Shown here: in pieces, positions 638 to 3,838 of the stretch
Layout: each line of letters starts with the position of its first letter
Numbering within the stretch: the stretch's first letter is position 1
Source of the DNA: Thermoplasmata archaeon
GTDB taxonomy: Archaea; Thermoplasmatota; Thermoplasmata; Thermoplasmatales; Thermoplasmataceae
DNA length: 36,870 nucleotides
Direction of reading: 5' to 3'
Assembly (NCBI GenBank): GCA_021821635.1
Contig: JAKACH010000010.1
Span: forward strand, 1-36,870
Translations under genes and position numbers: made by a program
Notes under the pieces: model-generated
Database searches by the model: none
What the model was told of the DNA's origin: nothing
Seen by the model: only the letters and a program-made list of their open reading frames with translations

Positions 638-660
638 TATTTATATAAAATCTATAAATA
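638..660 (+). promoter_or_regulatory. Candidate archaeal TATA-box region for the riboswitch/MutS-like transcript
   Basis: AT-rich tatttatataaaatctataaat about 25-35 nt upstream of the structured leader. Confidence 0.4.
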
Positions 661-667
661 CACTGAT

Positions 668-735
668 GCCGAGAAAAGTTCGGCTCAGAGGGATGGAGTT
701 CCCGATGATTGTCTCCAGAGACTGATAACTCCTGT
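668..735 (+). ncRNA. Candidate fluoride (crcB-type) riboswitch aptamer in the MutS-like operon leader
   Basis: GGG-AUGGAGUU-CCC (690-703), then hairpin GUCU-CCAG-AGAC (711-722), then UGAU-AACUCC-UG (723-734). GGAGUU (695-700) is complementary to AACUCC (727-732), as in the crcB pseudoknot. A GCCGA/TCGGC hairpin precedes it (~668-684). Confidence 0.75.
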
Positions 736-761
736 ATGGCAGCTGATGATTTCAGATGGTT

Positions 762-2300
762 ATGACAGGAGTGGATGATAGGGTTTTCAACAGTATTCTT
801 TGGCCTGATGGTCGCGCAGTGGAACTGAGAAAGGAAGATCCTGTTTGTTTTGTAGATCTCAACATCGATCAGATAATAGGATCTGTCGTTGCACCTTATA
901 AGGACTACAATCTTAGACCTTTTTTTGACACTCTGGCTATTGATCCAGATACGGTGAAATACAGGCAGGACATATTCAGAGATCTTGAGAAAGCAGACGT
1001 TTTTGCTTGCATGTACGACTTTTCGATAAAGATGAGGGATGTCCATAGATACATTTCAGGCATGGACAGGCTGTTTGAATGGCAGAGACAGGGCTGGATA
1101 CTCGACGCTGCCTTACTCTATTTTGGTGCTATGAATGATCTGGCACAGAGGCTTGCAGGTGCAGCTCTCAACTCAGATGGACTCATATCCCTCAGGAACT
1201 ATGTTCAGAAATACGTGGAGTCAGAAAGCTTCAGGAATAAAGAAGATAAGGCGAATGACATAAAGAAAAAATTATCGGCCATCAGATACGAAATGTCCTT
1301 TGGACCATCAAGGGTAACTGTGAGAAAGGACAAAGGTAGGGAAAGCTATAACGGGATTATACAGGAGGCATTCAGTAAATTTAGAAACGGCAAGAAATCT
1401 GCAGCGAATAAAAAGAGGTTCAGCGAATCATCGATGAATCATGTTGAAGCCGAGGTTCTTGCGCTGATTGCACGTTTATTCCCGGAAGAATTTGGTGAAC
1501 TCTCAGCTTTCTGCGAAAACAATTCTTCTTTCATTGATCCTGTTGTGGAAGTTGTGTACAGGGAGATCCATTTTTACCTGTCATATCTTGAATATATATC
1601 GGCAGTAAAGAAAGCCGGGCTAGAATTCTGCCTGCCTGAAATATGTACGGATCATGATATTTACTGCCTGAACTCCTTCGATCTCGCCCTTGCCCACAAG
1701 GCCTTAGCTTCCTCGTCTAAAGTAGTGGCAAATGATTTCCAGTTGTCAGGAGGGGAGAAGGCCCTGGTGGTAACAGGGCCGAACAATGGCGGGAAGACAA
1801 CGTTTGCTAGGTCGTTCGGGCAGGCTTTCTTCCTTTTTGCGCTGGGACTGCCTATTCCTGGTTCAAAAGCCCGCCTGTTCGTGCCAGACAATATCTACAC
1901 ACACTTTGAAAAGTCCGAGGATCCCGAGAATCTCATGGGTAAACTGGAAGACGATCTTGTTAGGATGAGGAAGATACTTTATATGGCCACGAACAGGAGC
2001 ATCATTATCGTCAATGAAATGCTCAGCTCCACAACATTAAAGGATGCCATCCAGATAGGCACTGAGATAATTGGCCTGATAATGAGAAAAAATGTACTCT
2101 GCGTCTATGTAACATTCCTGGATGAGTTTGCCAGGTTAGATGGCGTAGTGAGCATGGTCAGCCAGGTCGATCCTTCTTCGCCTGATATAAGGACATTCAA
2201 GATCAGGAGGACAGATCCAAACGGCCTTGCATATGCGAAAGCCATCGCAGAGAAATATGACCTCACCTACGAGAAGATTATGCGGAGGATCAGCGGATGA
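762..2300 (+). CDS. MutS-family ATPase-like protein (first of a tandem pair)
   Basis: C-terminal MutS-type Walker A VVTGPNNGGKTTFARSFGQ and Walker B-like IIIVNEMLSSTT; ~510 aa, seemingly without the N-terminal mismatch-recognition domain. ORF track start 756; ATG 762 also possible. Confidence 0.8.
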   Translation: MTGVDDRVFNSILWPDGRAVELRKEDPVCFVDLNIDQIIGSVVAPYKDYNLRPFFDTLAIDPDTVKYRQDIFRDLEKADVFACMYDFSIKMRDVHRYISGMDRLFEWQRQGWILDAALLYFGAMNDLAQRLAGAALNSDGLISLRNYVQKYVESESFRNKEDKANDIKKKLSAIRYEMSFGPSRVTVRKDKGRESYNGIIQEAFSKFRNGKKSAANKKRFSESSMNHVEAEVLALIARLFPEEFGELSAFCENNSSFIDPVVEVVYREIHFYLSYLEYISAVKKAGLEFCLPEICTDHDIYCLNSFDLALAHKALASSSKVVANDFQLSGGEKALVVTGPNNGGKTTFARSFGQAFFLFALGLPIPGSKARLFVPDNIYTHFEKSEDPENLMGKLEDDLVRMRKILYMATNRSIIIVNEMLSSTTLKDAIQIGTEIIGLIMRKNVLCVYVTFLDEFARLDGVVSMVSQVDPSSPDIRTFKIRRTDPNGLAYAKAIAEKYDLTYEKIMRRISG

Positions 2301-3838
2301 ATGTAAATTTGCTTTCCACGGATCCATCATACAGGTTGCCTGAAAACTTGCCCTTGAACGTGGAAGAGCTTGAGAAGGACCTGGATCTTGTCACAATTTA
2401 CAATGCAATGGCAGGAAACGATCGCTATGTGTTTGACGTATGCAGGAGAGCCATCATGAACAGCATCACGAATAGAGATACAATAGTGTACCGCCAGGGA
2501 GTGCTTCAGGACGCGCTCGACAATCCGTGCATCGTGCGGGATATATATTCTATCATTGTCGATTCAGTTGCACAGGCAAGAAGACTTCTATTCTGGGTGA
2601 GTCGCCAAAATCCTGAATTTGTGCTGCGCGAATCAATATCAGTGCTGCAGATTTACCTCACAGCGATAGAGAAGATAAGGGAGATAGGGAGAAAGGCATT
2701 ACCCTCCCTTCACTCAGAGGGCTTTCTGCAGTTCTTCACCATGATAAACCATGAATTCGACGATGACTACGTCAGGATGGTATCGGGCCACCTTGAAAAC
2801 CTCCACTTCCCTCGAGGGATTTATGTCCGCGGCGGGCTCGGAAGGGGTAACGCACTGACGGGATATGATCTTGTCATCCCGAAGGTCAGGCCGGACAGGC
2901 TCGTTAAACGGATCACAAACATCAGGGAACCGCATTACACTTATGTGCTGCCTGACAGGGATGAGCTGGGAGGACAGGCGCTGGGTGAGATGCGCGCCAG
3001 GAGCATATCTGAAACTGCAAGGATAGTGAGTGAGTCGGCTGAGAATGTTCTGGGTTTCATCGATCGCCTCAAGGAAGAGATTGCATTCTACCTCGGCTGC
3101 CTTAACCTTAAGAAACAACTGAACTCCATCGGCGCTAGTACATCTTTTCCGGTTCCTGTAAAAGACAGTGGAAGCGGAACTGTTTACGAAGGGATATATG
3201 ATCTGGCCCTGTGCATCAGGGCTGATCTTACGCTTGTTGGGAATTCCCTGTATGCAGAAAGAGATCATCTTATATTCATAACCGGTGCGAACAAGGGAGG
3301 GAAGTCCACACTGTTAAGGGCAATCGGACAGGCACAGCTTATGATGCAGAGCGGAATGTTTGTCGCAGCGGGCTCATTCAGCACTTTCATTGCCGCCGCT
3401 GTGTTCACACATTTCAAGAGGGAGGAGGACGCTGGGATGTCGAAGGGAAAGTTTGATGAGGAACTCAGCCGCATGAGTGGGATAGTTGATCATATAGTTC
3501 CAGGAAGCAGGCTGTTGTTCAACGAATCATTTTCATCAACTAACGTTAGGGAAGGATCTGAAATAGCGAAGAGCATTATGGATGCCCTTCTGACCATGGG
3601 AACCAAGATAATATTCGTAACTCATTTCAACGAGCTTGCAGAGGCATATCTTGACAGATTGCCGAAACCGGCGTTCCTGAGAGCAGAGCGGCTTGAGGAT
3701 GGAACTCGCACATTCAGGGTTCTGCAGGCAGATCCGATTGCAACAAGCTTTGGGTATGACGTGTTCCAGAAGGTCTTCAGGAACGAGATCAACCCCAAGG
3801 AATACAGTTCTGAAAAGGCGCTATCAGGAATGAACTGA
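2297..3838 (+). CDS. MutS-family ATPase-like protein (second of the pair)
   Basis: FITGANKGGKSTLLRAIGQAQLMMQSGMFV, LLFNESFSSTNVREGSEIA, IIFVTHFNELA; overlaps the upstream gene by ATGA. Confidence 0.85.
   Translation: MNVNLLSTDPSYRLPENLPLNVEELEKDLDLVTIYNAMAGNDRYVFDVCRRAIMNSITNRDTIVYRQGVLQDALDNPCIVRDIYSIIVDSVAQARRLLFWVSRQNPEFVLRESISVLQIYLTAIEKIREIGRKALPSLHSEGFLQFFTMINHEFDDDYVRMVSGHLENLHFPRGIYVRGGLGRGNALTGYDLVIPKVRPDRLVKRITNIREPHYTYVLPDRDELGGQALGEMRARSISETARIVSESAENVLGFIDRLKEEIAFYLGCLNLKKQLNSIGASTSFPVPVKDSGSGTVYEGIYDLALCIRADLTLVGNSLYAERDHLIFITGANKGGKSTLLRAIGQAQLMMQSGMFVAAGSFSTFIAAAVFTHFKREEDAGMSKGKFDEELSRMSGIVDHIVPGSRLLFNESFSSTNVREGSEIAKSIMDALLTMGTKIIFVTHFNELAEAYLDRLPKPAFLRAERLEDGTRTFRVLQADPIATSFGYDVFQKVFRNEINPKEYSSEKALSGMN

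What the first reader, a model, noticed from the sequence alone, without database searches (positions are those of the whole stretch)
638..2310. Candidate fluoride riboswitch controlling a tandem MutS-like ATPase pair
The leader 690-734 has the crcB architecture: GGG-AUGGAGUU-CCC, a GUCU/AGAC hairpin, UGAU, then AACUCC complementary to GGAGUU. From memory, crcB RNAs have been reported near mutS-type genes as well as fluoride exporters, but no exporter is visible here. Linking fluoride sensing to MutS-like ATPases in an archaeon is functionally unexplained.
Basis: partly seen in the sequence, partly recalled or inferred. Interest (0 to 1): 0.82.

Follow-up and report, generated by a model that had tools for sequence, protein, structure and literature searches.

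The report
Fluoride riboswitch before paired MutS-like ATPases
A fluoride-sensing RNA switch really does sit in front of two paired MutS-like ATPase genes in this acid-loving archaeon, and the same switch-plus-pair recurs across many bacteria, which suggests the pair helps cells survive fluoride by something other than pumping it out or classical mismatch repair; what it does is still unknown.

Summary
Window 680-741 is a full-length but sub-threshold match to the Rfam fluoride (crcB) aptamer (20.9 bits, cut-off 34). P1, P3, the pseudoknot and the UGAU core are intact. In the same family (Thermoplasmataceae-like), 22 of 24 orthologous gene pairs have an RF01734 match just upstream, five at or above the cut-off. 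Across 68 family leaders the pseudoknot covaries (403/408 pairs formed; 0/10,000 shuffles as high).

The pair (A 756-2300, B 2297-3838) is a conserved unit. B follows A in 80/80 public loci, mostly bacterial. 50/60 such loci hold a fluoride aptamer within 3 kb, 36 directly upstream of A.

A and B are MutS-fold ATPases lacking domains I/II and Smr, with an invariant Walker-B Asp-to-Asn change. They are the only MutS-family proteins in this genome. MutL is absent from the family (0/61) and Fluc nearly so (1/61), so mismatch repair is unlikely. Likely mechanism: fluoride forms the pseudoknot, frees a ribosome-binding region otherwise held in an alternative hairpin, and switches translation on. 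The pair's activity is inferred: a fluoride-stress remodelling ATPase. The crcB-mutS association was reported in 2010; its reason was not.

The parts
640..647 (+). TATA-box-like element TTTATATA, putative archaeal promoter, 48 nt before the aptamer P1 region
   Evidence: sequence; exact TTTAWATA at 48-49 nt in 8 of 22 mutS leaders; promoter activity inferred
680..741 (+). fluoride (crcB) riboswitch aptamer, full-length RF01734 match, 20.9 bits (below gathering 34)
690..703 (+). P1 hairpin GGG/CCC enclosing the AUGGAGUU loop
695..700 (+). pseudoknot 5' strand GGAGUU
711..722 (+). P3 hairpin GUCU/AGAC
727..732 (+). pseudoknot 3' strand AACUCC (also the first half of the alternative hairpin)
728..772 (+). 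proposed fluoride-free alternative hairpin: 728-735 (ACUCCUGU) with 765-772 (ACAGGAGU), 736-740 with 759-763; excludes the pseudoknot and holds the SD-like GGAG
767..771 (+). Shine-Dalgarno-like AGGAG complementary to the pseudoknot 3' strand
   Evidence: role inferred
756..2300 (+). gene A: MutS-like ATPase (514 aa), MutS_V only, Walker-B N420-E421
2297..3838 (+). gene B: paralogous MutS-like ATPase (513 aa), MutS_V only, Walker-B N409-E410; overlaps A by 4 bases

Best explanation
It is a fluoride riboswitch that turns on, probably at translation, an obligate pair of MutS-fold ATPases serving in the cell's response to fluoride. Shown by sequence: the aptamer architecture, its conservation in front of the pair, and the conservation of the pair as a unit. 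Supported but not shown: without fluoride the ACUCCUGU strand pairs with ACAGGAGU and hides the ribosome-binding region; with Mg2+/F- the pseudoknot takes up ACUCC and frees it, so A and B are made together. Inferred: A and B form a heterodimer like MSH2-MSH3 but without mismatch-recognition domains, using ATP-driven clamping to remodel something that fluoride jams (a stalled ribonucleoprotein or nucleic-acid complex, or a metal-fluoride-inhibited enzyme), not to repair mismatches.
For: Aptamer: RF01734 match at 680-741; independent hyf-leader model hit; 22/24 family pairs with a match just upstream, scores 17-42 bits; pseudoknot covariation over 68 leaders, 403/408 pairs, 0/10,000 shuffles as high, with types GGAGUU/AACUCC, GGCGUU/GACGCC, GACGUC/GACGUC, GAUGUC/GACAUC. 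Switch: 8-nt complement of the pseudoknot 3' strand to the SD region; stable hairpin in 724-785, -19.6 kcal/mol, z -2.99; 4 pairs with compensatory changes, 4-9 of 500 shuffles as high, slid controls far lower. Pair: A followed by B in 80/80 loci; 49/49 pair-bearing genomes have an RF01734 match, 43 over cut-off, against 4/14 control genomes; 50/60 loci with an aptamer within 3 kb, 36 directly upstream. Neighbours include CrcB, enolase, DUF190/CBS and NuoH/HyfC-like genes. Not mismatch repair: MutL 0/61; A and B are the only MutS_V genes. Fold: MutS.
Against: The window's own aptamer is below the Rfam threshold, and P1 has only 3 pairs. Two pairs (G018, G048) have no recognisable aptamer. The start codon in this genus is uncertain: the ATG used by close relatives is AGG here, so the SD-like GGAG at 767-771 may lie inside the gene and the hairpin would then mask the start region rather than a classical SD. 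SD sequences are generally complementary to CUCC, so part of the pairing is expected anyway, and distant leaders pair more weakly (5-6 nt, some G-U). No transcript, binding or phenotype data. The remodelling role is by analogy with the fold only.
Confidence: 0.75

Rival explanations
1. The pair is a DNA-repair factor: fluoride stress damages DNA and the pair acts as a MutS in mismatch or recombination repair.
For: MutS fold and MutS_V domain; Weinberg et al. 2010 proposed DNA-damage mitigation before the ligand was known.
Against: No MutS domain I/II in any of 65 members; no MutL in 61 family genomes; no other MutS partner in the genome; invariant Walker-B Asp to Asn in both subunits.
Confidence: 0.2
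2. The pair is a ribosome-rescue ATPase working like MutS2, splitting ribosomes stalled by fluoride-inhibited translation factors.
For: Structure hits include MutS2 on a collided disome and the T. thermophilus MutS2 core; B. subtilis MutS2 splits ribosomes with its ATPase (PMC10897456); the tip segment of B is on average positively charged (mean +3.7, whole protein -6.9).
Against: No Smr or KOW domain found, and these recruit MutS2 to collided ribosomes; the same segment of A averages only +1.0.
Confidence: 0.25
3. The pair is a reactivating chaperone for a fluoride-inhibited metalloenzyme, as KamC is named for lysine 5,6-aminomutase.
For: Weak similarity to NCBIfam KamC (49 and 72 bits); neighbours include enolase, an enzyme inhibited by fluoride.
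Against: Far below the KamC cut-off of 300; no single enzyme partner recurs beside the pair (enolase in 8 of 67 non-family loci).
Confidence: 0.25
4. The leader match is a chance or decayed aptamer that no longer senses fluoride in this genome.
For: Score 20.9 against a cut-off of 34; weak P1.
Against: All core nucleotides and the pseudoknot intact; the congener G037 (82% identical protein) keeps the same core; an independent model finds it alone in the window.
Confidence: 0.07

Closest known systems
Fluoride riboswitch, crcB motif (Rfam RF01734; Weinberg 2010, Baker 2012)
   Same: P1, P3, pseudoknot, UGAU core, 5' leader position; mutS and formate hydrogen lyase genes were already named as its targets (PMC2864571)
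   Different: Scores below the Rfam threshold; proposed translational SD-masking platform instead of the commonly described terminator; target is not an exporter
MutS2 (T. thermophilus, B. subtilis)
   Same: Short MutS core without mismatch-recognition domains; MutS-type ATPase; best target-normalised structural coverage (TMt about 0.6)
   Different: No Smr domain; two paralogous subunits in tandem; Walker-B Asn instead of Asp
MSH2-MSH3 / MutS mismatch-repair proteins
   Same: MutS fold; heterodimer of paralogues is a likely analogy
   Different: No domains I/II; no MutL in the family; invariant N-E in place of D-E
KamC, lysine 5,6-aminomutase reactivase ATPase (NF052383)
   Same: MutS-like ATPase of about 510 aa with a non-repair assignment
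   Different: Scores 49-72 bits against a cut-off of 300

Membership tests
Fluoride riboswitch (RF01734) | Match over the full model | tested here: met
   1-64/64, 680-741, E 7.8e-4
Fluoride riboswitch (RF01734) | Rfam gathering score 34 bits (curators' threshold, not a biological feature) | tested here: not met
   20.9 bits; orthologous leaders of the same gene pair do reach it: 42.1, 42.1, 40.8, 37.6, 34.0
Fluoride riboswitch (RF01734) | P1, P3, pseudoknot and conserved UGAU...U nucleotides | tested here: met
Fluoride riboswitch (RF01734) | Pairing kept by covariation in orthologous and paralogous leaders | tested here: met
   403/408 pseudoknot pairs, 0/10,000 shuffles
Fluoride riboswitch (RF01734) | Binds fluoride with Mg2+ | not testable with these tools
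   needs in-line probing or SHAPE
MutS (mismatch repair) | MutS_V ATPase domain | tested here: met
   A 52.4 bits, B 69.1 bits, cut-off 30.2
MutS (mismatch repair) | Mismatch-recognition domain I and connector II | tested here: not met
   absent from 35 A and 30 B members
MutS (mismatch repair) | MutL partner in the genome | tested here: not met
   0/61 genomes with PF01119; own assembly about 80% complete
MutS (mismatch repair) | Walker-B Asp-Glu | tested here: not met
   Asn-Glu in 35/35 A and 30/30 B
MutS2 | C-terminal Smr domain | tested here: not met
   no Smr match at E 0.01 in 65 members
KamC reactivase (NF052383) | NCBIfam cut-off 300 bits | tested here: not met
   49.1 and 72.3 bits

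The most novel reading that the evidence does not exclude
A fluoride-resistance machine found in two domains of life: an obligate MutS-fold heterodimer with Walker-B Asn in both subunits, working without MutL and, in this archaeal family, without a Fluc exporter, that releases cellular complexes jammed by fluoride or metal-fluoride nucleotide complexes, and is switched on by a fluoride riboswitch at translation.
Probability: 0.4. Interest if true: 0.85.

Novelty: new member of a known kind. Interest (0 to 1): 0.6.

Why it matters
The 2010 note that crcB RNAs precede mutS genes has stood without a reason. This work turns it into a defined object: one gene pair, always together, tied to fluoride aptamers in Archaea and many bacterial phyla, in an archaeal family that lacks MutL and nearly always Fluc. 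That argues against the easy readings (export, classical mismatch repair) and points to a third arm of fluoride resistance that can be tested by knockout in culturable bacteria such as Thermoanaerobacterium or Caproicibacter. A 2024 review of fluoride resistance (PMC11139923) does not mention MutS or DNA repair.

Tried and rejected
Chance match: rejected by orthologue conservation and covariation. Anti-phage defence role: PADLOC gave only marginal ATPase similarity. Recent bacteria-to-archaea transfer of the pair: not supported; archaeal and bacterial A proteins fall on two sides of one branch, 100/100, so any transfer is old; within the archaeal phylum the pair was seen only in this family (10 of 198 genomes). 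The first structure string was off by one column and is superseded. Model R1 took the pseudoknot as its only helix and missed 6 of the 22 known mutS leaders, so it serves only as an independent check. Baker 2012 was not held; a literature search for fluoride riboswitch plus MutS found nothing, and one for KamC nothing relevant.

Full report
Observation. The window leader at 680-741 matches the whole Rfam fluoride aptamer model at 20.9 bits, below the curated threshold of 34, with E 7.8e-4 in the 221-base search; the default scan reports only a tRNA. Mapping onto the crystal numbering of the T. petrophila aptamer (from memory) keeps the A6-U38 and A40-U48 partners.

Beyond chance. Searching 61 genomes of the same family found gene A in 24 genomes (plus one further genome, G054, with a partial match closer to B) and gene B next to it wherever the contig allowed. 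RF01734 matches lie just upstream of A in 22 of the 24. Scores run from 17.0 to 42.1 bits, five of them at or over the threshold. The other 46 aptamers with a clear downstream gene precede a NuoH/HyfC-like membrane protein (PF00146), including one in the window's own genome on contig C4 (39.7 bits). A covariance model built only from those hyf leaders finds 680-741 as its sole match in the window. Over 68 leaders of both kinds the pseudoknot forms 403 of 408 possible pairs against 351 (sd 4.9) in shuffles, none of 10,000 reaching it; on the 12 distinct combinations it is 69/72, none of 10,000. The mutS leaders themselves keep one pseudoknot sequence (GGAGUU with AACUCC or GACUCC), so the covariation evidence comes chiefly from comparison with hyf leaders.

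Expression platform. In the window the pseudoknot strand ACUCCUGU (728-735) is perfectly complementary to ACAGGAGU (765-772), which contains an SD-like AGGAG. The hairpin is the minimum free-energy fold (724-785: -19.6 kcal/mol, z -2.99, 2 of 200 shuffles as low), and the related leaders L036 and L039 show the same with P1 and P3 intact. Across nine related leaders the hairpin has four pairs with compensatory changes (4 to 9 of 500 shuffles as high; slid controls 31.6-49.1% paired against 84.6%). It and the pseudoknot cannot coexist. This supports a translational ON switch. Caveats: the closest relatives use an ATG where the window has AGG at 780-782, so the window's start is probably ATG 756 or 762 and the SD-like element may lie within the gene; in distant leaders the complementarity is shorter. 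A TATA-like TTTATATA at 640-647 lies 48 nt before P1, a distance shared by many mutS leaders.

The pair. A scan of public genomes with the A alignment found 488 relatives; the best 80 loci, spanning Thermoplasmata, Chloroflexota, Thermotogota, Bacillota, Spirochaetota, Atribacterota, Pseudomonadota, Actinomycetota and others, all have B directly after A. Of 49 genomes chosen only for carrying the pair, all have an RF01734 match at E 0.01 and 43 are over threshold; 4 of 14 control genomes ring. In 60 loci scanned with Rfam, 50 have an aptamer within about 3 kb (46 over threshold plus 4 sub-threshold found at an E-value cut-off), 36 on the same strand within 350 nt upstream of the A match. Recurrent neighbours are CrcB, enolase, DUF190/CBS, MFS and dynamin-like genes. 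Archaeal and bacterial A proteins separate on one branch (100/100), so the association is old on both sides.

Protein anatomy. A and B have only the MutS_V domain plus, weakly in 3 of 35 A members, MutS_III. AlphaFold models (mean pLDDT 86 and 79) match MutS, MSH and MutS2 structures. The Walker-B motif is N-E in all 35 A and 30 B members, aligned to D-E of MutS2; the matching E. coli change is D693N (PDB 3k0s; position equivalence from established MutS numbering). MutL is absent from all 61 family genomes, and the pair is the only MutS_V content of this genome and of ten relatives. Canonical mismatch repair is therefore unlikely.

Fluoride context. CrcB/Fluc is absent from 60 of 61 family genomes; CLC genes are present in 58 of 61 but were not typed. 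A plausible reason, inferred, is that a passive fluoride channel is of little use to acidophiles with a low or inverted membrane potential.

What is known. Weinberg et al. 2010 listed mutS, ion transport and formate hydrogen lyase genes downstream of crcB RNAs and suggested DNA-damage stress. A 2024 review discusses exporters, enolase, pyrophosphatase, Na+/H+ antiporters and formate hydrogen lyase as riboswitch-associated genes; the words mismatch and DNA repair do not occur in it. So the association is known; its conservation as an obligate pair, the lack of MutL and of Fluc, the Asn-Glu motif and the SD-masking hairpin are, to my knowledge, not described.

Verdict. Shown: aptamer architecture, conservation, pair. 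Supported: translational ON switch. Inferred: the pair's activity. I commit to a fluoride-stress remodelling ATPase, with ribosome rescue and enzyme reactivation as the two leading forms and DNA repair less likely.

Noticed in passing
L132 (Paraburkholderia sp. DHOC27), L153 (Caballeronia arationis), L157 (Proteobacteria SZAS-10): Genomes with dense clusters of fluoride aptamers: 34 matches in the DHOC27 genome, nearly all listed ones on one contig between 50 and 177 kb; 12 in Caballeronia, the listed ones on one contig; about 10 within 32 kb in SZAS-10. They look like fluoride-resistance islands and hold the MutS pair.
   Followed up: partly
L093:1734-2678 (own genome C4), and 45 other family leaders: The family's main fluoride aptamer target is a NuoH/HyfC-like membrane protein, with a different pseudoknot sequence from the mutS leaders.
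   Followed up: partly
L137:4247-5039, L121, L125, L143, L148, L157, L158: A dynamin-like GTPase / DUF6062 protein recurs next to the pair in about 10 bacterial loci and in L137 has its own fluoride aptamer.
   Followed up: partly
G027:C2:1907-2369: The only Fluc/CrcB gene in 61 family genomes lies directly behind a 47-bit fluoride aptamer; possibly acquired or a contaminant contig.
   Followed up: no
window 756-790: The start ATG used by close orthologues is AGG in the window and in congener G037; the ATG at 775 is out of frame, so translation probably starts at 756 or 762.
   Followed up: partly
L053, L054 (G048, G018): The two most divergent family pairs have no recognisable aptamer upstream: apparent loss of fluoride control.
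   Followed up: partly
L128:6224-6415: A molybdenum/tungsten riboswitch lies just after gene B in one Chloroflexi genome.
   Followed up: no
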